Shown: piece by piece, positions 8,722 to 24,315 of the stretch
Position numbering within the stretch: position 1 is the stretch's first letter
Layout: every line of letters starts with the position of its first letter
NCBI GenBank assembly: GCA_000415505.1
Contig: KE354481.1
Location: 1 to 36,012, forward strand
Origin: Streptomyces afghaniensis 772
Lineage (GTDB): Bacteria > Actinomycetota > Actinomycetes > Streptomycetales > Streptomycetaceae
Direction of reading: 5' to 3'
DNA length: 36,012 nucleotides
Made by a program: the position numbers and the translations under genes
Notes under the pieces: generated by a model
Databases searched by the model: none
What the model saw: the letters and a program-made list of their open reading frames with translations, nothing else
What the model was told of the DNA's origin: nothing

Positions 8722-8766
8722 ACGCTAGGATGGGCCGTCTCGTATGTCAACACGCCATCTCGCATT
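8722..8766 (-). promoter_or_regulatory. Sigma70-type promoter with two operator copies
   Basis: Reading leftwards: -35 TTGACA (8750-8745), 17-bp spacer, -10 TAGCGT (8727-8722). The spacer starts TACGAGACGGC, one copy of the motif shared across the island (8744-8734). A second copy, complement GCCATCTCGCATT at 8754-8766, lies upstream of the -35 box, exactly 20 bp (two helical turns) away. A repressor bound here would block RNA polymerase directly. Confidence 0.75.
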
Positions 8767-8817
8767 ATTCGCAGCGGATGAGGCCCGGGGGTGTCGAAGA
8801 CCTCGCTCCACCGCCCG

Positions 8818-9480
8818 CTACTGCGGCACTCCCTCGGACGCGTGCGCACCGGGCAGTGGGGCGGGCTGCGGTCCGCTGCGGGAGCGCAGCCACCAGTCGC
8901 GCATGCCCCACAGGACGAGCGCGCCATAGATGACGTAGACGAAGCCGGAGAAGGCGTAACCATTGGCGAAGGCCAGCGGGACGCCGACCAGGTCGACCAG
9001 CAGCCAGGCGATCCAGAACTCGACCATGCCGCGCGCCTGGGCGTACATCGCGACGACCGTGCCGACGAAGACGTAGGCGTCCGGCCAGGGGTCCCAGGAC
9101 AGAGTCGGGTAGGCCTTGAACAGGAGGGCCACAGCGACCGTGCAGACGGTGACCGCGCCGACCATCGCCGCACGCTCGCGCCAGGTGGCGAACCGCGGGG
9201 CGATCTGGCCGCTTCCGGATCGGCCCTTGTCGCGGTTCCAGCGCCACCAGCCGTACAGGGCCACGGTCATGACGACGGCCTGCTTGCCGGCGCTGCCGGT
9301 CAGGTTGCCGAAGAAGGCAGCGAAGAGGATGAGGCCGGACAGGAACTGCACCGGCCAGGTCCACAGGGAGCGGCGCCAGCCGAGGGCGAGGGCGGCCAGG
9401 CCGAGGATGTTGCCGATCATGTCCGACCACAGAATGTGCTGGCCGAACAGGACGAACGCCTCGGAGTTCAGTCCGTTCAC
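8818..9480 (-). CDS. pnuC: PnuC/RibM-family vitamin transporter
   Basis: A 220-residue membrane protein of the PnuC family, which takes up nicotinamide riboside, riboflavin or thiamine by facilitated diffusion. It has about seven hydrophobic segments and the family core WPVQFLSGLILFAAFFGNL ... GKQAVVMTVALYGWWRW, with a WIAWLLVDLVG segment near the end. Overall it recalls the actinobacterial riboflavin permease RibM as much as PnuC, so a flavin substrate is a real alternative. There is no FMN riboswitch upstream. It is followed, same strand, by the flavin reductase region, but the strong internal promoter at 8722-8750 makes them separate units. A GTCTAGAC palindrome lies 117 bp upstream of its start. 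Confidence 0.85.
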   Translation of the reverse strand: MNGLNSEAFVLFGQHILWSDMIGNILGLAALALGWRRSLWTWPVQFLSGLILFAAFFGNLTGSAGKQAVVMTVALYGWWRWNRDKGRSGSGQIAPRFATWRERAAMVGAVTVCTVAVALLFKAYPTLSWDPWPDAYVFVGTVVAMYAQARGMVEFWIAWLLVDLVGVPLAFANGYAFSGFVYVIYGALVLWGMRDWWLRSRSGPQPAPLPGAHASEGVPQ

Positions 9481-9517
9481 CGGGCGACCGGACCGGTTTC
9501 AGGCGAGTGAAGCGCGA

Positions 9518-9535
9518 ACCTGCCGTCCGGCAGGT
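9518..9535. other. Short perfect hairpin in the pnuC leader
   Basis: ACCTGCCG followed at once by its complement with two bases between (practical form: 7-bp stem, GTCC loop). It lies 38 bp upstream of the pnuC start on the transcribed strand. It could be an RNA hairpin or a protein site. No riboswitch consensus surrounds it. Confidence 0.4.
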
Positions 9536-9596
9536 CGTCGGGTATCGAGTTTCGGGAGCGATTCATGCGCCACAGCTTCAGGCCCCTATTCCCATA

Positions 9597-9608
9597 TTGT
9601 CTAGACTT
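9597..9608. promoter_or_regulatory. GntR/HutC-type operator candidate (TGTCTAGACT core)
   Basis: A perfect GTCTAGAC palindrome inside TTGTCTAGACTT, the core recognised by GntR/HutC-type regulators in actinomycetes (for example the DasR-like NTGGTCTAGACCAN class). It lies between the end of the sugar-binding lipoprotein gene and pnuC, next to a possible -10 box (CAATAT, minus strand). No GntR gene is in the window, so the regulator would be encoded elsewhere. Confidence 0.45.
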
Positions 9609-9691
9609 GACCTCGTAGGACCTGAATGGGCGACCCGGGGGGTGTGACTAGGCCTGGGGCGCGTCCGGCAGGCCGGTGGTGCCGTGGGGGC

Positions 9692-10801
9692 CTACTTCCT
9701 CAGGCCTGTCGCCGCGCAGTCGGCCGCGAGTGCGGGCGTGCATATGTCCGACGCTTTGTACATGCCGTCCCTGATGACCGTGTCCTTGATGTTGCCCTTC
9801 GTCAGGGCGACAACGGGCACGAGATGTGCGGGGATGCCCTTGCGGTGGGGGCTGTCGACCTTGTCACGTGTGAGGGCGGCGAACTGTATGTCTCTGCCCT
9901 GGGCCCTCGCCACGGCCATCTCCGCGGCGAGTTCGGCCTCCTGTGGGTACGGCTTGTACACGCTCATGTACTGCTCACCTGTGACGATCCGCCGCACCGC
10001 CGAGAGCTCGGCGTCCTGTCCGGTGATGGGTGGCAGGTCGGTTACGCCTGCGGCCTTCAGCGCCTCGATGATGCCGCCCGCCAGACCGTCGTTGGCGGCG
10101 TAGACGGCCTTGATGTCGTTCTTGCCGATTTCGTTGATCGCCTCGGTCATGTTCTTCTCAGCGGTCTGCGGCTTCCAGTCCTTGGTGTCGAACGACTTGG
10201 CGATCGTCACCTTGCCGTCGAGCGCGAGGAGCGCGCCCGCCTTGAACTGCTGGGCGTTCGGATCGATGGGCGAACCGTTCATCATGACGATCTTGTCGGA
10301 GATGCCGGCGTCCGCACCGAGGGCCTGCAGCAGGGAACGGCCCTGCACCTCGCCGACGAGCTCGTTGTCGAAGGTGATGTACGCGTCGATCGGGCCCTCG
10401 GCCAGCCGGTCGTAGGCGATGACAGGAATACCGGCCTCCTTGGCCTTCCTCACCCCGCCGGCGATGGCGTGCGCGTCGACGGGATCCAGCAGGATCACGT
10501 CGACCTGTGCGTTGATCATCTGCTGCAGTTGTCGTGCCTGCTCGTCCGCGTCCGCATCGGCGTTGGCGTACTCGACCCGGCCCTGGCCGCGGGTGAGGGA
10601 CGCGACCTTGGCCTTGATGACGGGGTGGTGGAACTGCTCGTACTGGGGGTTCGACTTTTCGGGCAGGAGCAGCCCTACGGTGATGTCGTCGCCCTTGGTC
10701 GGGCTCGCGTCGCCACTGCGCCCCGTCGCGTTGAGCCCACCGCAGCCGACGAGTGAGACAGAGAGCGCTGTGGTGGCTGCGGACATGGCGATACGGCGCA
10801 T
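9692..10801 (-). CDS. Orphan sugar-type ABC substrate-binding lipoprotein (RbsB/XylF-like)
   Basis: A 369-residue type-I periplasmic-binding-fold lipoprotein with lipobox LVGC (Cys 20). It reads DDITVGLLLPEKSNPQYEQF, DVILLDPVDAHAIAG, AGIPVIAYDRL, VYAANDGLAGGIIEALKAAG and PPITGQDAELSAVRRIVTGEQ, typical of ribose/xylose-binding proteins. The permease and ATPase genes usually next to it are absent, so it either borrows another transporter or has been recruited for sensing or for uptake of a non-sugar. Its upstream region (10900-11063) carries a cluster of the island's operator motif, which ties its expression to the catabolic genes rather than to sugar use. Confidence 0.88.
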   Translation of the reverse strand: MRRIAMSAATTALSVSLVGCGGLNATGRSGDASPTKGDDITVGLLLPEKSNPQYEQFHHPVIKAKVASLTRGQGRVEYANADADADEQARQLQQMINAQVDVILLDPVDAHAIAGGVRKAKEAGIPVIAYDRLAEGPIDAYITFDNELVGEVQGRSLLQALGADAGISDKIVMMNGSPIDPNAQQFKAGALLALDGKVTIAKSFDTKDWKPQTAEKNMTEAINEIGKNDIKAVYAANDGLAGGIIEALKAAGVTDLPPITGQDAELSAVRRIVTGEQYMSVYKPYPQEAELAAEMAVARAQGRDIQFAALTRDKVDSPHRKGIPAHLVPVVALTKGNIKDTVIRDGMYKASDICTPALAADCAATGLRK

Positions 10802-10899
10802 CGGGAGCTCACTTCAGGCGCGATCCGGACGTGGGTGCCGCATTGCGGCCCACCTGACTGAAAAGCCGACACGGAGACGCCCCGGTATCGAGCGGGGCT

Positions 10900-10932
10900 A
10901 CTCTACGAGATGAGAGACGGCATCTCGCAATA
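10900..10932 (-). promoter_or_regulatory. Promoter/operator of the orphan binding-protein gene
   Basis: Reading leftwards: TTGCGA (10930-10925) as -35 and CGTAGA or TAGAGT (10907-10900) as -10. The spacer holds TGCGAGATGCCGTCTCT, a near-palindromic copy of the shared motif (left half TGCGAGA, right half TCTCTCA). A further CATCTCGTA half lies over the -10 region. Confidence 0.55.
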
Positions 10933-10960
10933 TGTCCACCCGAGGTCGCGGTCGGGCTGC

Positions 10961-11030: not shown

Positions 11031-11040
11031 CCCGTATCGC

Positions 11041-11069
11041 TTGACACGATGCCATCTCGCATTGAAAGA
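11041..11069 (+). promoter_or_regulatory. Promoter/operator of the FAH-amidohydrolase-aldolase operon
   Basis: TTGACA (11041-11046), 17-bp spacer containing GCCATCTCGCATT (11051-11063), and a weak -10 GAAAGA (11064-11069). The start point would fall at about 11076-11078, at or next to the ATG at 11078, implying a leaderless mRNA. Confidence 0.65.
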
Positions 11070-11077
11070 TGCCCGCC

Positions 11078-11938
11078 ATGCGAGTAGTGACGACGGACGC
11101 CGGCCTGGGCCGGATCGAGGACGGGGCTGTCGCCCTGCTGAACACTGCTTTTCCGCACGTCGGCGCGGTCATCGAACAGGAGGGTTCGCTGCGGTGCCTG
11201 GCGTCGTGCGCGGTGCGCCGACGCATCCCGCTCGAAGAGGCCACGCTCGTGGCGCCCCTGGGCCGCCCCCGCGCGGTCTGGGGCGTCGGGCTCAACTACG
11301 TGTCGAAGGCAGCCCGCACCGGCCGCGGACTGCCCGAGCAGCCGATCCTCTACCTGGCCGCGTCGTCCGGCGTGTCGGCACCCGGCGCGCGGGTGGTGAT
11401 CCCGCAGTCCGCGACCGAACCCGACTACGAGGGCGAGATCGCGGTGGTCGTCGGGCGCCGGCTGTACCGGGCGACCGAGTCCGAGGTATGGCCCGCGATC
11501 GCCGGTGTCACCGCGGCCAACGACATGACGGCACGCGACATCATGCGCGCCACAGGCACTCCCGCCCTCGCCAAGAGCCACCCGGGCTTCACGCCGCTCG
11601 GCCCGTCGGTCCGCACTCCCGAGGATTTCACCGACCGTGACGCGATCCGCGTACGGACCCGGGTCAACGGTGAGCTCGTGCAGGACGACACGAGCGACGG
11701 GATGATCTTCCCGGTTCCCGATCTGCTCAGCAGGCTGTCGTGGTTCACCGTGCTTGAACCCGGCGACATCGTCCTCACCGGAACCCCGGCCGGCACCGGC
11801 CAGGACCGCGCGTGCTTCCTCGCCGACGGCGACGAGGTACGCGTCGAGGTGGACGGCGTGCTGCCCCTCGTCACCCGCATCGTGCGTCCCACGGACGCCT
11901 CACAGCACGACCACCGGCTGACCGAACCGGCCAGCTGA
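11078..11938 (+). CDS. Fumarylacetoacetate hydrolase (FAH) family protein
   Basis: A 286-residue FAH-fold enzyme. Family members hydrolyse or hydrate keto-acids in aromatic meta-cleavage pathways (2-hydroxypentadienoate-type hydratases, isomerases, decarboxylases). The C-terminal catalytic domain is clear: VWGVGLNYVSKA, EPDYEGEIAVVVGRR with the metal-binding Glu-x-Glu, VTAANDMTARD, SHPGFTPLGPSV and EPGDIVLTGTPAGTG. The N-terminal 65 residues are the usual less conserved domain. I chose ATG 11078, not 11069, because 11069 overlaps the -10 box. It is the first gene of an operon running to 14290. In context it probably acts after ring cleavage. Confidence 0.87.
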   Translation: MRVVTTDAGLGRIEDGAVALLNTAFPHVGAVIEQEGSLRCLASCAVRRRIPLEEATLVAPLGRPRAVWGVGLNYVSKAARTGRGLPEQPILYLAASSGVSAPGARVVIPQSATEPDYEGEIAVVVGRRLYRATESEVWPAIAGVTAANDMTARDIMRATGTPALAKSHPGFTPLGPSVRTPEDFTDRDAIRVRTRVNGELVQDDTSDGMIFPVPDLLSRLSWFTVLEPGDIVLTGTPAGTGQDRACFLADGDEVRVEVDGVLPLVTRIVRPTDASQHDHRLTEPAS

Positions 11939-11972
11939 CCGTTCCCCACCCTCCCCCCTGGAGCACACCTCG

Positions 11973-13136
11973 ATGTCCATCTCCTCCCTGTCGTCGTACG
12001 ACCTCGTCCTGGCCGGCGGCACCGTCATCGACCCGGCGTCGGACACCCATGCCCGGCTCGACGTGGCGGTCACCGGTGACCGCATCGCCGCCATCGGGGA
12101 GGGCCTGTCAGCGAACGCGGCCCGCACGATCGACGTCACCGGCTCCACCGTGCTGCCGGGCCTCGTCGAGGGCCACACCCACATCTTCCAGTACGTCTCC
12201 GCCGTCGGAGCCCCCGCCGAGGAGGCCCACCTGCGTCGAGGCGTGGTCGCCGCGGCGGATGCCGGGACGGCCGGCGCCTCGACGTTCGCGGCCTTCCGCA
12301 AGCTGGTGGTCGAGGCCAACCCACTGCGCATTGTCAACTTCCTCAACGTCTCGGTGCTCGGCCTGATCGACTTCAGGTTCGGCGAGCTGCTGAACCCCGA
12401 CACCCTGGTCCCCGAGGACGCACTCGCGACTGCCGAGGCCCACCCCGACATCGTCCGTGGCTTCAAGATCCGCCTCTCCGAGGACGTCGTCGGCGAGAAC
12501 TGGGAGTCGCTGCTGAAGAAGTCCGTGGCACTGGCCGAACAGGCCGGCCTGCCGCTGATGCTGCACATCGGCGAGACCTCGGAGCCGCTCCCCGTCGTCC
12601 TGGACCACCTGCGCCCCGGCGACATCGTGGCGCACTGCTACACCGGCAAGCCGTACGGCATCCTCGACGGCGACCACGTCCAGCCCGCCGTCACCGCGGC
12701 CCGTGAGCGCGGCGTCCTGTTCGACTCCGCCCACGGCAAGAGCAATCTCAGCTTCGAGGTGGCACGCCGGGCGATCGCCGACGGATTCCTGCCCGACGTC
12801 CTCAGCTCCGACACCAGCGCCCGTAACTGGCGCGGCCCGGTGTTCGACCTGCTCACCAGCATCTCCAAGCTGGTCGCGCTGGGCGCGCCGCTTGAGGAGT
12901 GCGTCCGGCGGGCCACCGTGGCGCCGGCCCAGTTGCTCGGGCTCGACGACGAGGGCTACGGGCGCCTGGAGGTCGGTGAGCGGGCCGACGTCACGGTCGT
13001 CGACTGGACCGACGAGGTCACCCTGCCCGACGCCGCCGGCAACACGATCGTCGCGCCGCGTCTGGAGCCGACCGTGGTGCTGCACGGCGGCAAGGAGGTC
13101 GACATCGTGCCGTGGCGGGGCCTGAAGTCGGCGTGA
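11973..13136 (+). CDS. Amidohydrolase/deacetylase-family metallohydrolase
   Basis: A 387-residue metal-dependent TIM-barrel hydrolase. Ligands follow the binuclear amidohydrolase pattern: H68 and H70 (EGHTHIF), a probable carboxylated K165 (GFKIRLS), H198 (LMLHIG), H221 (AHCYTG) and D280 (SSDTS). The N- and C-terminal beta-sandwich strands (LVLAGGTVIDP, GERADVTVVDW) are intact. It resembles the deacetylase-like branch of the superfamily more than dihydroorotase. It could cleave an amide, an ester or a cyclic amide. GGAG precedes the ATG. It lies 34 bp after the FAH gene and 27 bp before the aldolase gene, clearly one operon. Confidence 0.88.
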   Translation: MSISSLSSYDLVLAGGTVIDPASDTHARLDVAVTGDRIAAIGEGLSANAARTIDVTGSTVLPGLVEGHTHIFQYVSAVGAPAEEAHLRRGVVAAADAGTAGASTFAAFRKLVVEANPLRIVNFLNVSVLGLIDFRFGELLNPDTLVPEDALATAEAHPDIVRGFKIRLSEDVVGENWESLLKKSVALAEQAGLPLMLHIGETSEPLPVVLDHLRPGDIVAHCYTGKPYGILDGDHVQPAVTAARERGVLFDSAHGKSNLSFEVARRAIADGFLPDVLSSDTSARNWRGPVFDLLTSISKLVALGAPLEECVRRATVAPAQLLGLDDEGYGRLEVGERADVTVVDWTDEVTLPDAAGNTIVAPRLEPTVVLHGGKEVDIVPWRGLKSA

Positions 13137-13163
13137 CACGCCCGCACGTCCCAGGAGGACTCC

Positions 13164-13937
13164 ATGAGTGTCGGTGACGTCCATCTGCTGCGGCGCCGGC
13201 TGCGCAGGGCCCTGACGGCGGGGCGACCCGCCGTCGGCACGTTCGTCAAACTGGCCTCGCCCGACGTGGTGGAACTCGCCGCGGCGGCCGGGTTCGCGTT
13301 CGTGGTCGTCGACCTCGAACACTCCACCCTCACCGAGCGAGACGCCGTCGACCTGGTGCGCCACGCCGACGTGTGCGGGCTCCCGGCTCTGGTCCGCGTG
13401 CCCAAGGTGGACGCCGCCGCGGTCAACCGGCTCCTGGAGGCCGGGGCGGCGGGAATCCAGCTCTCCATGCTCACCCGCCTCGCCCAGTCCGAGGCACTCC
13501 TGGCGGCGACCCGGTTCGCTCCGACCGGCAGCCGGTCCGTGAGCCTGGCCAACAGAGCCGCCCGGTTCGGTGCGACCCCACTGGCCGGTTTCCTGCGTGC
13601 CGAGCAGGACGACCCGCCGGTGCTGGTCGGCCAGATCGAGACGGCGCGGACGGATCCGCTGCCGGAACTGGTCGCGGCCCTCGACGTGTGCTTCGTCGGC
13701 AGCACCGACCTCGCGGTCGACCTCGGCCTGCCGGCGGACCCGGCGGTGCTGGGCGCCGCGGTGGACCGGGTGAGGGGCGCCGCCCGCTCCGCCGGGGTGG
13801 CGTTCGGCGGCTGGGCGCCGAACCGGAACGCCGCGTCGGACCTGGGACTCGGTGACGCCGACTACCTGGTCGTCGGATCGGATCTGCAGATGTTGGCGGC
13901 CGGCCTGCGGGCGGCCGTCGGAGAGGAGAACCAGTGA
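13164..13937 (+). CDS. HpcH/HpaI-family class II aldolase
   Basis: A 257-residue aldolase of the 2,4-dihydroxyhept-2-ene-1,7-dioate type, which splits hydroxy-keto-acids into pyruvate plus an aldehyde using a divalent metal. It shows the family landmarks GTFVKLASPDVVELAAAAGFAF, VVVDLEHSTL (His-like base region), VRVPKVD, the metal-binding Glu in GQIETA and Asp in VGSTDLAVDLG. AGGAGG lies just before the ATG. Its place after FAH and amidohydrolase genes fits the last carbon-carbon cleavage of a meta-type pathway. The stop overlaps the cupin start (GTGA). Confidence 0.87.
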   Translation: MSVGDVHLLRRRLRRALTAGRPAVGTFVKLASPDVVELAAAAGFAFVVVDLEHSTLTERDAVDLVRHADVCGLPALVRVPKVDAAAVNRLLEAGAAGIQLSMLTRLAQSEALLAATRFAPTGSRSVSLANRAARFGATPLAGFLRAEQDDPPVLVGQIETARTDPLPELVAALDVCFVGSTDLAVDLGLPADPAVLGAAVDRVRGAARSAGVAFGGWAPNRNAASDLGLGDADYLVVGSDLQMLAAGLRAAVGEENQ

Positions 13938-14290
13938 GCACACGCAACGCGGCCCTGTTCCACACCGTCGTCAACTGGCACGAGATGCCGGTGACCCAGG
14001 TACGTCCGGGGGTCCGCCGTCGGGTCTACGCGACGGACGAGGTGATGATCTGCCATCACGAGCTCGACATCGGCATGACCCTGAACCCGCACCGGCACGA
14101 GGACTTCGACCAGCTGGTCCATATCGCCGAGGGGCGTGCGAACTACTACGTGGACGGGGTCGCACACGATATGCGTGCCGGTTCCTTCCTGCTGGTTCCC
14201 CGCGGCAGCGAGCACTACGTGGAGCCGACAGAGGCCCCGTGCGTGAACATCGACTTCTTCGTCCCGCCGCGGGCCGACCTGCTTCCCTGA
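13934..14290 (+). CDS. Small single-domain cupin
   Basis: A 118-residue cupin. Motif 1 reads HRHEDFDQLVHIAEG (metal-binding His, His, with Glu earlier), and motif 2 contains PRGSEHYVEP with the last His. The ligand set suggests a metal-binding enzyme or sensor. GTG 13934 overlaps the aldolase stop. It ends the operon, 26 bp before a perfect hairpin terminator. Its role is not known; a dioxygenase, isomerase or ligand-binding accessory function are all open. Confidence 0.82.
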   Translation: MSTRNAALFHTVVNWHEMPVTQVRPGVRRRVYATDEVMICHHELDIGMTLNPHRHEDFDQLVHIAEGRANYYVDGVAHDMRAGSFLLVPRGSEHYVEPTEAPCVNIDFFVPPRADLLP

Positions 14291-14365: not shown

Positions 14366-15160
14366 TCAGCCGCCGTTGGGCGCGTCTTCGGAGGTGCCCA
14401 GCCGCTGCGACAACGCCCGGGCGGTCTCCAGCAGCGCCTGGGCCATCGGCGACGTGACGTCGTCGGAAACGGTCGCCGTCGTGCCGACGATCGCCAGCGT
14501 TCCGCTGATCGTGTCGCCCTCGAAAATGGGCGCCGCGACCGTGCGGACACCGTTGACGGTGGGGGAGTTGACCGACAGGCCGTGCTTCCGGATGGCTTCG
14601 AGCTCCTCGTTCAGCTCGGATTTGCGGACCGAGCGCGGCAGCGTCGGCACCTGCTCCGGGGGCAGGAACGCGAGGAAGACGCGTCCCTGGGCCGAGGACG
14701 TGAGGTTCAGGCGCGAGCCGACGCGGACGCTGATGCGCACCATGTGGTCGGTGTTGTCCACCGAGCGCACCACGGTCGCCGACTCGCCGTCCCAGACCGA
14801 CAACACGATGGTCTCGTCGATGCGCCTGACGAGTTCCTCCATGTACGGCTCGGCGGCGGCGACGATCGGCAGGCCGGCCCGCGCCGCCGTGGCGAGCGTG
14901 AGCACCTGGGGCCCGAGGGAGTACAGCGAGGTGCGCTCGTCGTACCGCAGCAGGTTCGCCGCCCGCAGTGCCTTCGTGTAGCGGTGCGCGGTCGCCTTGC
15001 TCGCCCCGAGGCGCGCGGTGATCTCGTTGAGGCTCATGTGCGGTTTTCCGACCGTGAACGAGCCGAGGATCAGCGCCGCACGCTGCACCGTCTGGATCGT
15101 CGGCGCTGTCCTGTCCGGACCGTCCTGCTCGCCGGTGCCGCCCTGCGCCTTCGTGGCCAT
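14366..15160 (-). CDS. IclR-family transcriptional regulator
   Basis: A 264-residue regulator. The N-terminal winged helix is clear (IQTVQRAALILGSF, MSLNEITARLGASKATAHRYTKAL, then a wing ending YSLGPQVL). The C-terminal effector domain follows (GLPIVAAAEPYMEEL ... VLSVWDGESATVVRSV ... SSAQGRVFLAFLP ... VAAPIFEGDTISGTLAIVG). IclR proteins next to aromatic catabolic genes usually respond to a pathway substrate or intermediate. GGAGCGAG precedes the ATG. It sits in the middle of the island, and its own promoter has a copy of the shared motif, so I infer it is the regulator of the 8.1-24.3 kb genes. Confidence 0.93.
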   Translation of the reverse strand: MATKAQGGTGEQDGPDRTAPTIQTVQRAALILGSFTVGKPHMSLNEITARLGASKATAHRYTKALRAANLLRYDERTSLYSLGPQVLTLATAARAGLPIVAAAEPYMEELVRRIDETIVLSVWDGESATVVRSVDNTDHMVRISVRVGSRLNLTSSAQGRVFLAFLPPEQVPTLPRSVRKSELNEELEAIRKHGLSVNSPTVNGVRTVAAPIFEGDTISGTLAIVGTTATVSDDVTSPMAQALLETARALSQRLGTSEDAPNGG

Positions 15161-15202: not shown

Positions 15203-15231
15203 CAAATGAAACGCCGTCTTGTATGAAGCAA
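15203..15231 (-). promoter_or_regulatory. Promoter/operator of the IclR gene
   Basis: Reading leftwards: TTGCTT (15231-15226), 17-bp spacer with TACAAGACGGC (complement GCCGTCTTGTATG at 15213-15225), then CATTTG (15208-15203). The -35/-10 match is weak and the motif has one change, as expected for mild self-regulation. Confidence 0.55.
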
Positions 15232-15361: not shown

Positions 15362-16360
15362 TCACGCGTCCGAGGAGTGCCCCGGTGTGATCGAGCGTGC
15401 TGGATCGAGCAGGGCGGCGATGTGGTTGACGGCCAGGGCCGCCTCACCGAAGCCGATGGAGATGAGGCTGACCTTGCCGTCGTGGTCGGCGATGTCGCCG
15501 GCCGCGAAGACGCGCTCCCGGTTCGTGCGCATCGTGCGGTCGACGAGGATGCGCCGACGTCGCAGCTCGAGTCCCCACCGTTCGATCGGGCCGAGATCGG
15601 CGATGAAACCGAGCGCGGCGACGACGGACTGGGCGGGCAGGATGATCCGGTCGCCGTCGGAGGACGCGACCACGACCTCCGACACGGCCCCCTCGCCGGA
15701 GACCTTCTCGACCTCGTACGGCGTCAGCACCCGCACCGAGGAAGCGTGTACCTGCTCGACACTGCGCTCGTGGGCCCGGAACCGCGTGCGCCGGTGCACC
15801 AGCGTCACCGACGAGGCGATCGGCTCCAGCGACAGCGCCCAGTCCAGCGCGGAGTCCCCACCGCCGACCACCACGACGTCCTGTCCGGCGAGCTCGTGCA
15901 ACCGCGGTACGAAATACCGCAGCCCCCGGCCGAGGTACTCGGAGCCCACCGGGAGTTCGCGGGGGATGAAGTTGCCGATGCCGCCGCAGACGAGCACCGC
16001 GCCCGCGGTGACGCGCGCGCCGGCGTCGGTGGTGGCGACGATGCCCTCGCCCGTGTCGTCCAGCCGGGTGACCCCGTGCCCGAGCAGGTAGGTGGGGTTC
16101 CACCGCCAGGCCTGCTCGGCCAACCGGTCCACCAGGTCCTGACCTCGGACAGCGGGGAAGCCGGCCACGTCGTAGATGAGTTTCTCGGGGTACAGCGCGG
16201 CGATCTGGCCGCCCACCGCGGGCAGAGCGTCGGCGACCGCCACGCTCAAGCCGCGGAAGCCGGCGTAGTACGCGCCGTACAGCCCGGTCGGGCCGGCGCC
16301 GATGATGAGCAGGTCGACGGAGACTTCGGGGCCGGCTCCCGTGGGCGCGTGGCCGGTCAC
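15362..16360 (-). CDS. Ferredoxin-NADP+ reductase, thioredoxin-reductase-like type
   Basis: A 332-residue FAD protein that moves electrons from NADPH to ferredoxin. It has the FAD motif GAGPTG (residues 21-26), DALPAVGGQIAALYPEK, the NADPH motif VVVGGGDSALDWAL, an ALGF region and the C-terminal FAD site VFAAGDIADHDGK. It lacks the CxxC disulfide of true thioredoxin reductases, which fits type-2 FNR of the YumC class. I chose GTG 16360 because it overlaps the ferredoxin stop as GTGA; longer in-frame sequence belongs to the ferredoxin gene on another frame. It is the reductase of the Rieske oxygenase electron chain. Confidence 0.88.
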   Translation of the reverse strand: MTGHAPTGAGPEVSVDLLIIGAGPTGLYGAYYAGFRGLSVAVADALPAVGGQIAALYPEKLIYDVAGFPAVRGQDLVDRLAEQAWRWNPTYLLGHGVTRLDDTGEGIVATTDAGARVTAGAVLVCGGIGNFIPRELPVGSEYLGRGLRYFVPRLHELAGQDVVVVGGGDSALDWALSLEPIASSVTLVHRRTRFRAHERSVEQVHASSVRVLTPYEVEKVSGEGAVSEVVVASSDGDRIILPAQSVVAALGFIADLGPIERWGLELRRRRILVDRTMRTNRERVFAAGDIADHDGKVSLISIGFGEAALAVNHIAALLDPARSITPGHSSDA

Positions 16361-16671
16361 GCGCCCACCTCCGGGTGGTCGTATCCGACCTGGCCGACCT
16401 TGCGGGCTCCGCCGGGCGAGCCGAGCGGTTCGGTCCCGAGGGTGAAGAACTCGGCGTTGATGCGCTCGAAGTGCTTGCTCTCCTCCGGCAGGTCCTCGTG
16501 ATGGAAGATCGAGATCTGCGGGCAGACGGGTTCGCAGCGCCCGCACTCGACACATTCGTCGGGCTGGATGTAGAGCATCCGGTCGCCCTCATAGATGCAG
16601 TCGGCCGGGCACTCCTCCATGCACGACTTGTCCATGATGTCGACGCAGGCCTGCGTGATGACGTACGGCAC
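16357..16671 (-). CDS. fdxA: 7Fe (3Fe-4S/4Fe-4S) ferredoxin
   Basis: A 104-residue FdxA-type ferredoxin. Cys 9, 17, 21 and 25 and Cys 40, 43, 46 and 50 form the two cluster motifs; the long C-terminal tail ending SPGGARKVG is typical. GTG 16671 (VPYVITQAC) matches the usual family N-terminus and has GAAGGG upstream. The earlier ATG at 16704 lies in the predicted promoter. It is first in a two-gene transcript with the reductase and diverges from the Rieske oxygenase operon, so the two transcripts together encode a three-component oxygenase: reductase, ferredoxin, oxygenase. Confidence 0.9.
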   Translation of the reverse strand: MPYVITQACVDIMDKSCMEECPADCIYEGDRMLYIQPDECVECGRCEPVCPQISIFHHEDLPEESKHFERINAEFFTLGTEPLGSPGGARKVGQVGYDHPEVGA

Positions 16672-16694: not shown

Positions 16695-16723
16695 CGCACA
16701 GCATGCGAGACGGTGTATTTCAA
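16695..16723 (-). promoter_or_regulatory. Promoter/operator of the ferredoxin-reductase transcript
   Basis: Reading leftwards: TTGAAA (16723-16718), 17-bp spacer with ACCGTCTCGCATGC (operator copy, TGCGAGACGGT on the + strand at 16704-16714), then TGTGCG (16700-16695). Placing the start near 16688 supports translation from 16671. Confidence 0.6.
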
Positions 16724-16810
16724 TGTGGAACAGGATGATGGCCGTGCCGGGGCGGGGTGTCAACCGGAAAACGAATGCTTGACACCTTGAGAATGCTGGG
16801 GGACTCTGAT

Positions 16811-16839
16811 GCGACATACGAGATGGCGTCTCATAGCAC
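16811..16839 (+). promoter_or_regulatory. Promoter/operator of the Rieske oxygenase operon
   Basis: GCGACA (16811-16816), 17-bp spacer starting TACGAGATGGCGTCTCA, then TAGCAC (16834-16839). The spacer holds the most symmetrical copy of the motif: TACGAGA, five bases, TCTCATA. Layout is nearly the same as at 8722-8750. A second TTGACA (16779-16784) lies further upstream without a good -10 partner. Confidence 0.75.
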
Positions 16840-16876: not shown

Positions 16877-18229
16877 ATGGGAAGCAACCCCCGGACCGTC
16901 CCAGCGCCGATGATCGTCGAGGACTGGGACCAGCTCACCTTCCGGGTCAACCGCGAGGCCTACCGAAGCGCGGAAATCTTCGCCCGGGAACGCGGCTGGG
17001 TGTGGATGCACACCTGGCTCTACCTCGGGCACGAGACCGAGATCCCCAACCCCAACGACTTCAAGGTCCGCACCCTCGGCGGCCGGCCGCTGATCTTCTG
17101 CCGAGACAGCGCCGGCGAAGTGCACGCGTTCCTGAACTCCTGTCCGCACCGCGGCACCGTGCTGTGCCGCGAAAATGAGGGTTCGACCAGGCTCTTCCAG
17201 TGCTTTTACCACGCCTGGACGTTCCGCAACAACGGCGAGGTCGCCGCGATCCCCGACGCCGGGGCGTACGAGTCGAGCGACGAGTTCCGGGCGTCGATGG
17301 GGCTGCGCGGCGTGCCGCGCCTGGAGACCCACGAGGGGTTCGTCTTCGTCTCCTTCGACCCCGACGTCCCGCCGCTGCTCGACTACCTCGGCGACGCGGC
17401 CGACTACATGACGATGATCCAGCAGCAGCACGCCGGCGGCATGACCACCCTGCCCGGCACACAGCTCTACAGCGTGCGCGGCAACTGGAAACTCGCCGTC
17501 GAGAACGCCATGGACGGCTACCACTTCGCCCCGACGCACAACACGTTCGTGGGCTACCTGCGCGAGAGCGGCTACGCCGTCACCGACGACAACCAGTACG
17601 CGTACAACCTCGGCAACGGCCACGGACTGCTGGTCCTGACCGGGCACGGCGGACGCATCAGCATGATCTGGGAACCGCGCTTCGGTGAGGACGAGCGGGT
17701 CCGCACCGAGGCCCACCGAGCGGAGATGACACAGCGGCTGGGGGAGGAGCGGGCGCACTACGTGGCCGACGAGAGTCACATCCTGTTCGTCTTCCCGAAC
17801 CTGCTGCTGTTCGACATCGAGGGCCTGTCGATCCGGCAGCTGGAGCCCGTGGCACCCGACCAGACCGACGTGCGTGCCTGGCAACTGGTCCCGCGCGAGG
17901 AGGACCCGGACACGCGCGCCCTGCGCATGAAGACGGTCGTCAGCTTCGTCGGCCCGGGCGGACTCGCGACGCCGGACGACATCGAGGCGTACGAGGCGGT
18001 CCAGCGCGGCATCCAGGCCACGGCGGGCACCACCGCACCCGAGCTGGACTACAGCGACATGTCACGCGGCATGGCCGACGAGGTCAAGGGTGTCCAGGGC
18101 AGATCGATCGACGAGGGCGCGATGCGGGGCTTCTGGCGGCAATGGGTCGAAGCCACCGGGCTCGACGACGGCCTCGAGATCCACGGCGAGCGACCGGCGT
18201 CCTTCCTGGCAGGGAGGGACGTGCGATGA
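16877..18229 (+). CDS. Rieske aromatic-ring-hydroxylating oxygenase, alpha subunit
   Basis: Catalytic subunit, 450 residues, of a Rieske non-haem iron oxygenase that adds oxygen to an aromatic or related substrate. The [2Fe-2S] ligands are C89, H91, C109 and H112 (SCPHRGTV ... CFYHAW). The active-site iron is held by H216 and H221 in DGYHFAPTH, with D213 as the electron-bridging residue; the C-terminal Asp ligand region (about 350) is present. ATG 16877 is preceded by GAGAGG; in-frame sequence back to 16757 crosses the promoter and is not coding. A beta subunit follows with a 4-base overlap, as in alpha3-beta3 enzymes. Substrate unknown. Confidence 0.93.
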   Translation: MGSNPRTVPAPMIVEDWDQLTFRVNREAYRSAEIFARERGWVWMHTWLYLGHETEIPNPNDFKVRTLGGRPLIFCRDSAGEVHAFLNSCPHRGTVLCRENEGSTRLFQCFYHAWTFRNNGEVAAIPDAGAYESSDEFRASMGLRGVPRLETHEGFVFVSFDPDVPPLLDYLGDAADYMTMIQQQHAGGMTTLPGTQLYSVRGNWKLAVENAMDGYHFAPTHNTFVGYLRESGYAVTDDNQYAYNLGNGHGLLVLTGHGGRISMIWEPRFGEDERVRTEAHRAEMTQRLGEERAHYVADESHILFVFPNLLLFDIEGLSIRQLEPVAPDQTDVRAWQLVPREEDPDTRALRMKTVVSFVGPGGLATPDDIEAYEAVQRGIQATAGTTAPELDYSDMSRGMADEVKGVQGRSIDEGAMRGFWRQWVEATGLDDGLEIHGERPASFLAGRDVR

Positions 18230-18771: not shown

Positions 18772-19983
18772 ATGATCCGACACACCCTGTCCTTCCGTTT
18801 CGCCGACGGAGTCGACGAGGCCACGCGGGAGTCCGTGCTGGCCGAGCTGCGCACCTTCCCGGACCGGTACCCGGCCATGTGCGGCTTCGTCCTCGGCGAG
18901 AACATCAGCACCCGCGACCAGACCTTCACCCACACCATGGCCGTCGACTTCGACAGTCAGGACGACCTGCTCGCCTATCTCGGCAGCGAGTCACACGAGA
19001 GCTTCGTGCGCACACGCTGGCGGCCGGTCATCGCCCAACAGGCCATCACCTCGTTCGAGTTCGCCGAGCGCCCCTCGCTCGCTGCAGGAAGGACACCGCC
19101 GGTGAGCACCCGCCCGCACGGCCCGTACGGCATGGAGTACGCCCGGATCGAAGTTCCGGACATGCAGGCCACGATCGACTTCCTCGAGTACCACGTCGGA
19201 CTGCAGCTGGAGCAGCGTACGGACGAGTACGCCTACCTGCGCGCCGACATCGAGCATCACGCGATCGAACTGATCCACGCCCCCGAGCGCACCGACGGCT
19301 GGACGACCGCGATCGGCTACAGCGTCGAGAGCGAGGAGGTCCTCGAACAGCTGCACAAGAGCGTGCTCGACGCCGGACTCGAAGTGCTCGAACTGCAGGA
19401 GCGACAGAAGGCGCTGTGCGACAACGGCTTCGCGGTGAAGGACCCCGACGGCCTCATCGTCGAGCTGTTCACCGAGTTCCAGGAGTACGCCGAGCCGCCG
19501 CACATCGAGATCCGGCCGCTCGACCTGGTGCACCCCTTCATCGCCACCGCGAAGTTCGAGGAAACGGTGGACTTCTACCAGAACGTCCTGCGGTTCCGGC
19601 CCTCGGACCACGTCGTCGGCTCGACCACGTTCTTCCGCGGCGAGGACCGCTACCACCACAGCCTCGCGATCCAGAACAACAAGGAGCACTTCACCGCGCA
19701 CCTGTGCTTCGCGATGAAGAGCCTCGACCACGTCATGCGGATGCGCGCCCGCGCGCTGTACAAGGGCGCGCCGATCGCCTCGGACATCGTCAACCACTCG
19801 GCGTCGACGTCGATCGCGTTCTACCTGCACGACCCCCGCTTCGGCCCGCGTTACGAACTGTGTGACAGGCACCGGGTGTTCACGCCGGAGGAGCACGAGA
19901 CGCACCGGCCCCGCCGGATGCCGGCCGACCCGCGCAACATCGACGTGTGGCGTCCGGCTTCCGACGACTGGGGACGTTTTTGA
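18772..19983 (+). CDS. Dabb-VOC fusion, probable extradiol-type ring-cleavage dioxygenase
   Basis: A 403-residue fusion. Residues 1-100 form a Dabb (stress-responsive ferredoxin-like barrel) domain, starting MIRHTLSFRF. Residues 119-375 form two VOC modules like a type I extradiol dioxygenase. The C-terminal module has a 2-His-1-Glu metal site: H254 (LVHPF), H310 (TAHLCF) and E362 (RYELC). The N-terminal module lacks the first His, as in structural modules. The linker contains an in-frame ribosome site (AGGAAGGA, 19085-19092) and GTG at 19102, so the VOC part may also be made alone. It follows the Rieske subunits by 21 bp, consistent with cleavage of their diol product. Confidence 0.85.
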   Translation: MIRHTLSFRFADGVDEATRESVLAELRTFPDRYPAMCGFVLGENISTRDQTFTHTMAVDFDSQDDLLAYLGSESHESFVRTRWRPVIAQQAITSFEFAERPSLAAGRTPPVSTRPHGPYGMEYARIEVPDMQATIDFLEYHVGLQLEQRTDEYAYLRADIEHHAIELIHAPERTDGWTTAIGYSVESEEVLEQLHKSVLDAGLEVLELQERQKALCDNGFAVKDPDGLIVELFTEFQEYAEPPHIEIRPLDLVHPFIATAKFEETVDFYQNVLRFRPSDHVVGSTTFFRGEDRYHHSLAIQNNKEHFTAHLCFAMKSLDHVMRMRARALYKGAPIASDIVNHSASTSIAFYLHDPRFGPRYELCDRHRVFTPEEHETHRPRRMPADPRNIDVWRPASDDWGRF

Positions 19984-21140
19984 GACAGCAGTTGCTCGAC
20001 GTCCTGCACCTGCTCGATGCGCTCCCCGCCCCACGTGGCGGGGAGCGCACGGCGGCCCACCGGTTGCGCGCCTGGTGCGCCGAGCGGTGGCCGCACGTCG
20101 AGTGGCAGGTGCTGGAGCACGGCTCCGCGGGCGGCAGCCTGGTCGCTGACCACGGAGCCGGGCCGCTGCTCTACTCCCACCTCGACACCTCGCTGGACGA
20201 GCAAGGTGCGGCCACCCGGCTCGTCACCGGCGACGACGCGCCCGTCGGTCCGCTGACTGTCGACGGCGACAGGGTGACCGGCTTCGGCCTCGGGGTCGCC
20301 CGCGGGCCCGCGGCCGCCGCACTGGTCGCCTTCGCCGAGGCGGGTGCCGGGCGGCTCCTGCTCGCGGGCTCCGGGACGCACCGCCGCACGAGCGGGAGCA
20401 CCGGTCTTGAGGCATACATCGACGCCTACCCGCTGCCGCCCTCGGCGATCGTGGCCAAGTGCGGCCCGCCGACGCTGCTGTGGCACGAGCCGGGCGCGTT
20501 CTACCTGACCGTCCGGGTGACCGGACGCTCCGGGGCCGCGATGGTGGCGGAATCCGCCACGCCACCCGGGGGAGTCGTCGCTCAGGCCGGCGTCGTCCTG
20601 GACGAACTGGCACGCTGGCGCACGGCCTATCTGGCCGCCGATCCCAGGGCGGGGCAGACCGGCCGGGCGTGCGGCATCGGAGCGATCAGTGGGGGATGGC
20701 CGGACAAGCCGGACCTGCTGCCGGCCCAACTGCGGGTCGATCTGTACGTCGTCGTCGGTGACCAGGCGGAGCCGAAGACGCTGGCGGCCGAACTGACCGA
20801 CCGGCTGCGGGCGCGGTGCGCCGCGTCGGACTTGCGTGATTGCGACATCGACGTGGAGGCCGAGCCGGTCGCGTCCGCCGCGGCCACGCCGGCCGACGCC
20901 CCGGTGGTGACGGCCGCCCGAGCGGCCTGGCTCGACGAGTTCGGTACGCAGCCGCCGCCGATCACCGGATGGACGGGCTCGACCGACGGCGTCGTCCTGC
21001 GCGCTCGCGGCGTCGACACCGTGCGCCTCGGCCCGAGGGCGAGGCCGGACACCGACGAACCGCGTCGCGATGCCCTGTCGTTGACGGATCTGACCGCCTT
21101 CGCGCGCATGTACCGAAAGCTTTTGACCGAACCGGGCTAG
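19980..21140 (+). CDS. M20-family-like protein without metal ligands
   Basis: A 386-residue protein with the M20 (ArgE/DapE/CPG2) layout. H67 and D69 of the first motif are kept (LLYSHLDTSLDE). However, the second motif reads GLGVARG, with Ala107 and Arg108 where the bridging Asp and Lys belong. The Glu-Glu pair is replaced by GSGTHRRTSG, and the C-terminal His (usually just before DE) is missing from RARPDTDEPRR. It is therefore unlikely to be a normal two-zinc peptidase. It may be a mono-metal enzyme or a binding protein. Start TTG 19980 overlaps the previous stop as TTGA; ATG 19947 is an alternative. Confidence 0.75.
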   Translation: MRQQLLDVLHLLDALPAPRGGERTAAHRLRAWCAERWPHVEWQVLEHGSAGGSLVADHGAGPLLYSHLDTSLDEQGAATRLVTGDDAPVGPLTVDGDRVTGFGLGVARGPAAAALVAFAEAGAGRLLLAGSGTHRRTSGSTGLEAYIDAYPLPPSAIVAKCGPPTLLWHEPGAFYLTVRVTGRSGAAMVAESATPPGGVVAQAGVVLDELARWRTAYLAADPRAGQTGRACGIGAISGGWPDKPDLLPAQLRVDLYVVVGDQAEPKTLAAELTDRLRARCAASDLRDCDIDVEAEPVASAAATPADAPVVTAARAAWLDEFGTQPPPITGWTGSTDGVVLRARGVDTVRLGPRARPDTDEPRRDALSLTDLTAFARMYRKLLTEPG

Positions 21141-21196
21141 CCCGGGCGGTTGCCGACGGTGGACCCAGGGAGTCGCGCGATGCCGAGACCATACGT

Positions 21197-21212: not shown

Positions 21213-21232
21213 GAAAGGAAGTGGACGGGCCG

Positions 21233-22009: not shown

Positions 22010-22656
<647 letters not shown>

Positions 22657-22704
22657 CCCTGCTGAACATGTACGTCGCCGATGCTGTCGGCACCCCGGTC
22701 CCTG

Positions 22705-22741
22705 GTACGGCGGCGCGCTGCCCGTAGGCGCGCCGCCGTAC
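22705..22741. terminator. Hairpin terminator after CoA-transferase genes
   Basis: A perfect 14-bp stem (GTACGGCGGCGCGC and its complement) with a 9-base loop, followed by GTTTGG. Confidence 0.9.
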
Positions 22742-22854
22742 GTTTGGGCAGACAACCGCCGCAGCCCTGCGTCGGCATGGCTGCGGCGTTGGGGAAACTG
22801 TCTGGTGGTGCGCGACGGCGTCAGTACGGCCGCTCAGGCGCGCCTTGCTGTGCA

Positions 22855-22895
22855 CCACCCGCACCGGCCGTCAGCGTGAGGGCCGGTGCGGGTGG
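22855..22895. terminator. Hairpin terminator after the TauD/TfdA gene
   Basis: A perfect 15-bp stem (CCACCCGCACCGGCC and its complement) around an 11-base loop, 5 bp beyond the minus-strand dioxygenase stop. With the hairpin at 22705 it forms a two-sided barrier between convergent operons. Confidence 0.88.
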
Positions 22896-22900
22896 CGGTG

Positions 22901-23974
22901 TCACACTCCCCAGTCGTCGTTGACGGTGACCGCGTCGCCGATACGGAACCGGCCGCCAGGCACCAGCGGCGTCGTGGGCTCACCCAACTCGACGACGTGC
23001 TTGCCGAACTTGGGAGCCAGCGGGCGGCCGACGTCCCGCTTGAGCCACAGGCGCAGCAGGTGCCGACGGCGCTCCGGCTCCGGGTGGTCGACATAGCTGG
23101 TGCGTGAGTGCAGCGCGGCGTAGTTGAGCAGCCACTGCACGTCCCCCGGCTGGAAATCCATGTCGATCGGCAGGCCCGGCTCCTGTGAGATCTCGTCGAA
23201 GAGGTTGATGGCCGCGACCTGGTCGGGCGTCAGTTGCGGGACACCGGGGTACTCCTGGGCGCTGAAGATCATCGAGTTGCCCGCGTAGGTGCTGAAGACC
23301 CCGTCGACGTAGCCGATGATCGGCGAGGTGTAGGTCAGTTCCGGAGAGTCGGGGTCCTGACGCCGCCAGTCCCAGTGGTACGTGTCGAAGAGCCGAGGAG
23401 CGAGGTCCGGCCGGCGGCGCAGCATCTCGTTGTAGATCGTGGTTCCGCTGACCAGGCTGGAGGCTCCACCCTCCTTGGCGCCGCGCAGGCACATGAGGGC
23501 GACGACGTCCGAGCTGTCCGAGTGGAACGGCAGCCGGTCCCGCACTCGGGAGGGCAGAGCCCCCTCGTCGGACAACGTCTTGTTCGACGTGGCGATCACG
23601 TGGTCGAGCAGGTCTCCACGCTGGTTCTGCCCGATCGGCTGGCCCAGGTGCAGTCCCATGACGAAGAAGATGGCGGCTGCCATGGCGTCGCCGTACTCCT
23701 CGGTGCGCAGGCCGCGCACCAGGACGAAGCCGCGTCCGGCGTCCATCTGGGCCGCGCACTCCTCGTTGAGTGCGCGGCAGGCGTCGAACGGGTAGTCGGC
23801 GGCGGTGACGGTGCGCAGGTCGGGGTTCTCGGCGACGAAGCGCCGTCCCAGTGCCTCAAGCTCAGCCCGCTCGGCGTCGCTGAGCACGTAGATCCATTCG
23901 GTGGACCTCGACAGCTCGTCGCCGCGCCAGGCGGACGGTCCGGAGATCGGCTGAAGGCCGACAGTGGTGGTCAT
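22901..23974 (-). CDS. TauD/TfdA-family 2-oxoglutarate-dependent dioxygenase
   Basis: A 357-residue Fe(II)/2-oxoglutarate oxygenase with the double-stranded beta-helix core. The iron triad is H151 and D153 (FHSDSSD) with H289 (ALHSRTSY); the 2-oxoglutarate-binding Arg is in RRRHLLRLW. The length and the FVLVRGL ... QPIGQNQRGDLLDHV stretch fit the larger clavaminate-synthase-like branch. ATG 23974 (MTTTVGLQ) has GAGGAGC upstream; the in-frame extension to 24088 looks non-coding. It may hydroxylate a substrate or remove a side group before ring attack. It is transcribed towards the CoA-transferase operon, probably from the motif-bearing promoter at 24287-24315. Confidence 0.9.
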   Translation of the reverse strand: MTTTVGLQPISGPSAWRGDELSRSTEWIYVLSDAERAELEALGRRFVAENPDLRTVTAADYPFDACRALNEECAAQMDAGRGFVLVRGLRTEEYGDAMAAAIFFVMGLHLGQPIGQNQRGDLLDHVIATSNKTLSDEGALPSRVRDRLPFHSDSSDVVALMCLRGAKEGGASSLVSGTTIYNEMLRRRPDLAPRLFDTYHWDWRRQDPDSPELTYTSPIIGYVDGVFSTYAGNSMIFSAQEYPGVPQLTPDQVAAINLFDEISQEPGLPIDMDFQPGDVQWLLNYAALHSRTSYVDHPEPERRRHLLRLWLKRDVGRPLAPKFGKHVVELGEPTTPLVPGGRFRIGDAVTVNDDWGV

Positions 23975-24053
23975 GGTGATGCGCTCCTCGAAAATGCGGT
24001 GAAAGCCCGTGGGCGAAGACCCGACGGAAGACGAAGATCTCGGTGCGGCGGGT

Positions 24054-24074
24054 GTTCGTCGCTCGGCGACGAAC
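24054..24074. other. Hairpin between the small gene and the dioxygenase gene
   Basis: GTTCGTCGC-TCG-GCGACGAAC, a perfect 9-bp stem with a 3-base loop, in the 115-bp gap between the 46-codon frame and the dioxygenase. It could reduce read-through or protect RNA. Confidence 0.4.
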
Positions 24075-24088
24075 GGCACCCGGAACAC

Positions 24089-24229
24089 TCAGAACGGGGT
24101 CTGAGGCTCGCCGGCGGCCGTACCGGGGCGCAGTCCTTCCCGGGGCGGGAAGTAACTGAGCGGCTCGTCATAGGTCCGGCGGCCAGCGCACGACACGAGC
24201 AGAACGCCGATCAGGGCGACTGTCTCCAT
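24089..24229 (-). CDS. Small 46-residue protein upstream of the dioxygenase
   Basis: A short frame with ATG 24229 and AAAGGA 12 bases upstream. The product starts METVALIGVLLVSCAG, a short hydrophobic helix with a lipobox-like LVSC, and then a Pro-rich polar tail (YFPPREGLRP ... QTPF). It is first in the transcript from the motif-bearing promoter and runs in the same direction as the dioxygenase. I do not recognise it. It might be a small membrane or lipid-anchored protein, or a leader peptide. The good ribosome site and position support it; the short length argues for caution. Confidence 0.45.
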   Translation of the reverse strand: METVALIGVLLVSCAGRRTYDEPLSYFPPREGLRPGTAAGEPQTPF

Positions 24230-24286
24230 GCTGGTTCCGTCCTTTCGAGAAGTGCCTCAACCATAAGTGAGGGCAGAATGCGAGTC

Positions 24287-24315
24287 AATGGACGTGACGC
24301 CGTCTCGTATTGCAG
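24287..24315 (-). promoter_or_regulatory. Promoter/operator of the small-protein/dioxygenase transcript
   Basis: Reading leftwards: CTGCAA (24315-24310), 17-bp spacer starting TACGAGACGGC (complement GCCGTCTCGTATT at 24299-24311), then TCCATT (24292-24287). It is the right-most operator copy found, so it marks the likely border of the regulon. Confidence 0.6.

What the first reader, a model, noticed from the sequence alone, without database searches (positions are those of the whole stretch)
8722..24315. An IclR regulon defined by operators placed inside promoter spacers
The motif TRCGAGAYGGC (complement GCCRTCTCGYATT) occurs before the flavin reductase (two copies), the orphan binding protein and the FAH operon (shared region), the IclR gene, the ferredoxin pair, the Rieske operon and the TauD gene. 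In almost all cases it starts right after the -35 hexamer, inside a 17-bp spacer, the best being TTGACA-N17-TAGCGT. The Rieske copy is palindromic (TACGAGA-N5-TCTCATA). A repressor bound there would exclude RNA polymerase. The single IclR gene in the middle is the natural candidate. Motif positions are seen; the regulator assignment is inference.
Basis: partly seen in the sequence, partly recalled or inferred. Interest (0 to 1): 0.8.

Follow-up and report, generated by a model that had tools for sequence, protein, structure and literature searches.

The report
IclR repressor's conserved aromatic-degradation operator set
A Streptomyces-type gene cluster for breaking down an unknown, probably aromatic compound carries a repeated DNA tag in front of its operons that is kept in related clusters of other actinobacteria together with one regulator gene, so that regulator very probably switches the cluster on and off.

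Summary
The motif is real. It is a 19-bp palindrome, TRCGAGAYGNCRTCTCGYA, often with one weak arm. Related clusters (57 loci, one duplicate removed) hold 161 sites of 16 bits or more, 125 of them not of the training type; about 3 are expected. Ten orthologous Rieske clusters found by the Rieske protein all carry the operator; nine show the IclR gene nearby, in one the contig ends. Seven paralogous Rieske clusters have neither. So an IclR regulon is well supported. DNA binding is untested.

The title claim, operators inside promoter spacers, fails for several sites. It holds for the proximal flavin reductase site and FAH, probably for the binding protein. The Rieske and ferredoxin operators lie downstream of the -10, over the start of transcription. 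The TauD operator abuts the -35 from upstream. These geometries recur in relatives. All fit steric repression.

The operator resembles KdgR-type IclR sites. New member of a known kind: a regulon for an uncharacterised ring-hydroxylation and cleavage pathway.

The parts
14366..15160 (-). IclR-family regulator gene (264 aa), proposed repressor
   Evidence: Pfam HTH_IclR 39.8 bits (cut-off 22) and IclR_C 91.1 (cut-off 24); recognition-helix residues TAHRY in all 82 rows aligned, duplicates included
8726..8744 (-). operator, flavin reductase proximal, in the spacer of TTGACA (8745-8750) N17 TAGCGT (8722-8727)
   Evidence: exact half-site; 9.1 bits, weak alone; promoter kept in window and the 3 relatives aligned, half-site with 1-3 changes
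8746..8764 (-). operator, flavin reductase distal, 20 bp upstream of the proximal one, overlaps the -35
   Evidence: 14.8 bits; 13.6-16.4 bits in the 3 relatives
10911..10929 (-). palindromic operator before the sugar-type binding protein gene 9692-10801; upstream of TAGAGT (10900-10905)
   Evidence: 26.0 bits; site >=16 bits in 3 of 3 loci counted as holding the gene, window included
11043..11061 (+). operator in the FAH promoter TTGACA (11041-11046) N18 AAAGAT (11065-11070), probable leaderless start ATG 11078
   Evidence: 16.2 bits; promoter boxes in 30 of 31 loci with a site >=10 bits, of 45 examined; alignment
15205..15223 (-). weak operator before the IclR gene (possible autoregulation)
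   Evidence: 12.2 bits; under 9 bits in 12 of 16 Streptomyces relatives
16704..16722 (-). operator downstream of the ferredoxin promoter TTGACA (16758-16763) N17 CATCAT (16735-16740)
   Evidence: 17.5 bits; alignment of 22 rows, window included, read by eye
16817..16835 (+). palindromic operator downstream of the Rieske promoter TTGACA (16779-16784) N17 GACTCT (16802-16807)
   Evidence: 26.0 bits; of 52 loci 51 have a site >=14 bits, 49 of these TTGAC 34-41 nt upstream, 46 of the 49 NANNNT at 17-18 nt
24291..24309 (-). operator abutting from upstream the TauD promoter TTGACT (24283-24288) N17 TATGGT (24260-24265)
   Evidence: 15.0 bits; of 24 loci 23 have a site >=11 bits, 22 of these TTGAC directly at its end
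16877..18229 (+). Rieske ring-hydroxylating oxygenase alpha subunit, first gene of the target operon
11078..14290 (+). FAH hydrolase, amidohydrolase, HpcH/HpaI aldolase, cupin operon
   Evidence: synteny; start by alignment
15362..16671 (-). ferredoxin and FAD reductase pair
   Evidence: reductase by Pfam; ferredoxin named from its sequence (recalled family), start GTG by alignment
22901..24088 (-). TauD-type dioxygenase
8069..8503 (-). flavin reductase
9692..10801 (-). periplasmic sugar-type binding protein

Best explanation
The sites are operators of the IclR-family protein encoded at 14366-15160. Shown: a 19-bp palindrome TRCGAGAYGNCRTCTCGYA, conserved together with the IclR gene and placed at promoters of the catabolic units. 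Inferred: a dimer binds each palindrome (two dimers 20 bp, two turns, apart before flavin reductase) and, without inducer, blocks RNA polymerase in three ways: covering the spacer (flavin reductase, FAH, probably SBP), covering the transcription start just below the -10 (Rieske, ferredoxin), or covering the DNA up to the -35 (TauD). A substrate or intermediate of the pathway would release it. The ligand is unknown.
For: A matrix from 24 distinct non-Streptomyces Rieske sites ranks the eight window sites 1 to 8. 161 sites >=16 bits in 57 cluster loci (1.11 Mb), 125 of them not of the training type; Markov-3 sequence gave a mean of 3.0 for the same loci plus one duplicate, and 0 sites lay inside genes matched to window proteins. 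Sites >=16 bits before FAH in 35 of 47, TauD 15 of 25, X19947 12 of 53, SBP 3 of 3 loci holding the gene, none used in training. X19947 has a site only in loci where gene order makes it head its own unit. Rieske searches of 394 and 392 genomes: 10 orthologues including the window, all with operator, IclR seen in 9 and contig end in 1; 7 paralogues with no IclR match in the 12-20 kb fetched and no site >=12 bits. A second IclR copy (60-63 percent) away from the cluster keeps a 14.2-bit site 31-41 nt before its start in 5 of 5 Microtetraspora loci. IclR is the one regulator type common to the window, L056 and L061 among the proteins scanned. Near-perfect TTGACA boxes under or beside the operators fit repression.
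Against: No binding or expression data. The site before IclR is under 9 bits in 12 of 16 Streptomyces relatives. The 8726 site scores only 9.1 bits, about 1.2 expected per window by chance. Sites outside the cluster reach 15.7 bits in the own genome and 17.1 in G009, and one-mismatch palindromes in genomes without the orthologue reach 22.7. Most loci were fetched by IclR itself, so their synteny is biased. Of 12 fetched IclR loci classed as lacking the cluster, 2 have a site >=16 bits. No site >=16 bits before FAH in 12 of 47 loci or TauD in 10 of 25. The TauD position also suits an activator.
Confidence: 0.86

Rival explanations
1. IclR is a dual regulator: it represses where the operator covers the start site or spacer, but activates tauD (and perhaps iclR), where the operator sits at the upstream edge of the -35.
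For: In 22 of 23 TauD loci with a site the operator ends 2-3 nt upstream of TTGAC or overlaps it by one base, with TANNNT at 17-18 nt; some IclR proteins activate (recalled).
Against: In 11 of the 22 the 19-mer shares a base with the -35, which should hinder polymerase; the promoter hexamers look strong enough to need no activator.
Confidence: 0.18
2. Another regulator binds the palindrome and the IclR gene is merely a neighbour.
For: Binding is not shown; the copy before IclR is weak in Streptomyces. Other regulators occur nearby in single loci: TetR in the window, LuxR- and PadR-type in L061.
Against: The window's TetR has no match in the loci listed; no other regulator type is shared by the window, L056 and L061 among the proteins scanned; Rieske searches keep IclR and operator together; the palindrome resembles the KdgR operator and the family's 18-22 nt tandem spacing (PMC8222616).
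Confidence: 0.08
3. The motif is a chance or codon-usage by-product of a GC-rich genome.
For: With two mismatches the half-site is not enriched in the window; 62 exact half-sites exist genome-wide; 24 of 78 genus genomes without the orthologue have one or two one-mismatch palindromes, scoring 16.4-22.7 bits.
Against: Conservation at fixed promoter positions over genera; 161 sites against about 3 expected; among 80 genus genomes only the two with the orthologue have a zero-mismatch palindrome.
Confidence: 0.01

Closest known systems
KdgR-type (group 2) IclR operators, PMC8222616
   Same: The KdgR motif RWWGAAACGNCGTTTCAKKA shares centre and arm spacing with CGAGAYGNCRTCTCG (compared by eye); a chain named KdgR (5y6i) is the best solved-structure hit of this IclR; tandem sites 18-22 nt apart are described for the family.
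   Different: Core is CGAGA instead of TGAAA; KdgR is listed there for pectin and galacturonate genes, this regulon is a ring-hydroxylation cluster; the NCBIfam KdgR model scores 71.9 bits, far below its cut-off 275.
PcaR/PcaU/PobR family IclR regulators of aromatic catabolism
   Same: Best NCBIfam match of the IclR protein (97.3 bits); control of aromatic degradation operons.
   Different: 97.3 bits against a cut-off of 284.75, so not a member; the published GTNCG-N5-6-CGNAC type motif does not fit by eye.
PheR of Sphingobium (PMC13273656)
   Same: IclR repressor of a phenanthrene-degradation operon with a footprint over the start site (+23 to -21), like the Rieske and ferredoxin sites here (passages).
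   Different: Different operator (GCAACG core) and organism; a single operon in the passages seen.

Membership tests
IclR family of regulators | N-terminal IclR winged helix and C-terminal IclR effector domain | tested here: met
   HTH_IclR 39.8 bits and IclR_C 91.1 bits, above Pfam cut-offs
IclR family of regulators | Palindromic operators, often tandem 18-22 nt apart (PMC8222616) | tested here: met
   19-bp palindrome; flavin reductase sites 20 bp apart; FAH pairs 25 bp apart in relatives, outside that range
IclR family of regulators | Published consensus group 1 or group 2 | tested here: inconclusive
   Compared by eye: close to KdgR's site, but CGAGA departs from TGRAACA
IclR family of regulators | Specific binding as dimer or tetramer released by a ligand | not testable with these tools
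   needs protein
KdgR | NCBIfam equivalog cut-off 275 bits | tested here: not met
   71.9 bits
PcaR/PcaU/PobR | NCBIfam subfamily cut-off 284.75 bits | tested here: not met
   97.3 bits
   Rieske, ferredoxin and TauD sites lie outside the spacer

The most novel reading that the evidence does not exclude
One IclR protein controls one pathway through three promoter geometries kept in clusters of several actinobacterial genera (spacer, transcription start, abutting the -35), so that operator placement sets the order or even the sign of control, with ring-attack genes held by a start-site block and tauD activated or released first.
Probability: 0.2. Interest if true: 0.5.

Novelty: new member of a known kind. 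Interest (0 to 1): 0.36.

Why it matters
It gives a testable regulator, operator and target list for an uncharacterised actinobacterial ring-hydroxylation and ring-cleavage cluster found in several genera. The operator can be used to find further pathway genes (in other genera a P450, aldehyde and alcohol dehydrogenases, a hydantoinase-like hydrolase) and hence the substrate. It also shows a case where a look at one genome misplaces the promoter and comparison corrects it.

Tried and rejected
Rejected: (1) judging by the half-site alone; not enriched with 2 mismatches. (2) The spacer reading at Rieske, ferredoxin and TauD; contradicted by conserved -35/-10 boxes elsewhere. (3) TetR at 25994-26617 as regulator; its protein has no listed match in the loci. 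(4) Counting two-mismatch palindromes in whole genus genomes: counts do not separate genomes with and without the IclR gene; only zero-mismatch sites and their location do.

Led nowhere: paper searches for the operator letters (20 of 21 papers listed, none relevant by title and start of abstract), for the cluster by its enzymes (1 paper, listing only) and for IclR meta-cleavage regulation in Streptomyces (15 of 20 listed, listing only). I did not identify the substrate. No structure was predicted. PMC13273656 was seen in passages only; PMC8222616 in outline, passages, part 1 of the results and two further sections.

Row handling: one search classed 58 of 70 sequences as cluster loci (Rieske or FAH homologue above 45 percent identity); L044 and L121 are the same DNA over the 5 kb compared, and repeats the count without L121 (57 loci, 161 sites). 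L102 and L103 are two pieces of one genome. Close strains are not independent. One search leaves out L121, L039, L040, L042 and L104 as duplicates. One search drops translations with stops, identity up to 45 percent or coverage up to 0.8; 82 rows remain, duplicates included. The matrix is trained on non-Streptomyces Rieske sites, so Rieske counts of those genera are circular (36 of the 161 sites); the other targets and the window are not.
Full report
WHAT IS THERE. The window (36,012 bases, 69.7 percent GC) is contig C776, positions 1-36012, of a 9.85 Mb genome. Its nearest named relatives at this locus are 12 Streptomyces, 90-95 percent identical in the IclR protein; an unnamed same-genus genome, G009, has 97 percent. 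The cluster holds a Rieske oxygenase alpha/beta pair, a Dabb-extradiol dioxygenase fusion, a ferredoxin and FAD reductase pair, FAH hydrolase, amidohydrolase, HpcH/HpaI aldolase, cupin, CoA transferase, TauD, flavin reductase, a sugar-type binding protein, a PnrA-like importer and one IclR gene. None of the nine enzymes and binding proteins scanned reaches an NCBIfam cut-off; the CoA transferase subunits reach the subfamily cut-offs of 3-oxoacid CoA-transferase. The substrate is open; 'aromatic' rests on the families.

THE MOTIF. Exact TRCGAGAYGGC occurs five times here of 62 in the genome. Loose half-sites are not enriched. The informative unit is a 19-bp palindrome, TRCGAGAYGNCRTCTCGYA, clearest in other genera. 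A matrix built from 24 distinct Rieske-promoter sites of non-Streptomyces loci, made symmetric, was run over the window. In Markov-3 sequence scores of 14.8 or more are expected 0.125 times per window; the last two sites are weaker, 0.35 and 1.2. Elsewhere in the own genome two-mismatch palindromes reach 15.7 bits, so the weaker window sites lean on position and conservation.

CONSERVATION. In 58 cluster loci there are 165 sites of 16 bits or more against a mean of 3.0 in randomised sequence, none inside a gene matched to a window protein. Without the duplicate L121 it is 161 in 57 loci, 36 of them Rieske sites of the training type and 125 independent. Sites stand before FAH in 35 of 47 loci with the gene, TauD 15 of 25, SBP 3 of 3, X19947 12 of 53 and flavin reductase 1 of 4 at this threshold. 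X19947 is instructive: within the Rieske operon it has no site, but where gene order makes it head its own unit (Microtetraspora, Micromonospora, Streptosporangium L082, L101, L127) it has one of 24-31 bits. L084, whose contig begins close by, has none.

WHICH REGULATOR. Loci fetched by IclR are biased, so I searched by the Rieske protein. In 394 class genomes and 392 genus genomes (the draws overlap) there are ten orthologues (67-98 percent, and the window) and seven genomes with only a 41-44 percent paralogue. All ten orthologues have the operator. Nine have IclR nearby, and in G586 the contig ends first. The seven paralogous loci have no IclR match in the 12-20 kb fetched and no site of 12 bits or more. 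Among 80 genus genomes only the two with the IclR orthologue have a zero-mismatch palindrome, in the cluster both times; 24 of the other 78 have one or two one-mismatch ones. With two mismatches the counts do not differ (32 genomes). In five Microtetraspora loci a second IclR copy away from the cluster keeps a 14.2-bit site 31-41 nt before its start. The recognition-helix residues TAHRY are in all 82 rows aligned and in 1 of 25 IclR paralogues (L025; three more have TAHRL). IclR is the only regulator type shared by the window, L056 and L061 among the proteins scanned.

PROMOTER GEOMETRY. Rieske: of 52 loci, 51 have a site of 14 bits or more and in 49 of these TTGAC starts 34-41 nt upstream of it, with NANNNT 17-18 nt after the -35 in 46 of the 49. 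The operator therefore covers about +1 to +22 (start inferred). Ferredoxin: TTGAC[AG]-N17/18-CATCAT-like boxes stand upstream, the operator 12 nt below the -10 in the window (22 rows read by eye). FAH: of 45 loci 31 have a site of 10 bits or more; 30 of these have TTGAC at a fixed place and AAAGAT or AAGGAT 17-18 nt after the -35, 6-7 nt before the start codon in the rows, which suggests a leaderless message (inference). Many have a second operator 25 bp upstream. TauD: of 24 loci 23 have a site of 11 bits or more and in 22 TTGAC follows directly (one base shared in 11, 2-3 nt away in 11), with TANNNT at 17-18. Flavin reductase: two operators 20 bp apart, the proximal one in a TTGACA-N17-TAGCGT spacer, in the window and the 3 relatives aligned. 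SBP: the operator lies just above TAGAGT/TACAGT; the -35 is unclear, and the L053 row did not align because its hit begins at residue 49. IclR: the weak site abuts TTGACG and I found no convincing -10.

MECHANISM. Shown: the sites, their conservation and positions. Inferred: IclR binding, repression by steric block, induction by a pathway compound. Against: no binding data; the site before IclR under 9 bits in 12 of 16 Streptomyces relatives; 12 of 47 FAH and 10 of 25 TauD loci without a site at 16 bits; only 2 of 12 IclR loci without the cluster hold such a site.

COMPARISON. The survey PMC8222616 (outline, passages and sections read) describes two operator groups and lists KdgR as RWWGAAACGNCGTTTCAKKA; ours, CGAGAYGNCRTCTCG, fits that frame with a different core. 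It also reports tandem sites 18-22 nt apart. PheR (PMC13273656, passages) protects +23 to -21 of its target, like the Rieske site. CGAGA as the start of a word does not occur in the main text of PMC8222616, and the listings of searches showed no report of this regulon; supplements were not open to me, so an earlier listing there is possible.

VERDICT. A well-conserved IclR regulon, by sequence evidence, with a corrected promoter picture; ordinary in kind, useful in detail.

Noticed in passing
window 8590-8694 (-): A small frame (34 aa) between the flavin reductase promoter and the gene; similar frames (longer) with alike start and end occur in L043, L053 and L124, and it stops one base before an ATG. 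In the window the frame downstream of that ATG is offset from the relatives by a 2-base gap, so the flavin reductase start is unclear.
   Followed up: partly
window 19947-21140: Cluster gene without a Pfam family, only weak similarity to deacylase models, conserved in most clusters; it has its own operator where it heads a unit.
   Followed up: partly
L061:3900-4060: In Nocardioides an operator (22.3 bits) stands before a hydantoinase-like amidohydrolase, isochorismatase and 2Fe-2S protein unit, hinting at an N-containing substrate.
   Followed up: partly
L095:13262, 14446, 16158: In Microtetraspora sites stand before or near the start of a P450-reductase fusion, an HpaE-like aldehyde dehydrogenase and a zinc alcohol dehydrogenase; the third is an exact half-site, not 16 bits.
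   Followed up: partly
L040, L056, L082, L087-L096: Several lineages carry two IclR copies in one fetched stretch; whether they share the operator was not tested.
   Followed up: no
genome level: The cluster is patchy: the Rieske orthologue is in 8 of 392 genus genomes searched, window included, which suggests accessory or horizontally gained DNA.
   Followed up: no
window 18772-19983: Dabb domain fused to an extradiol-type dioxygenase, also in Nocardioides L061.
   Followed up: no
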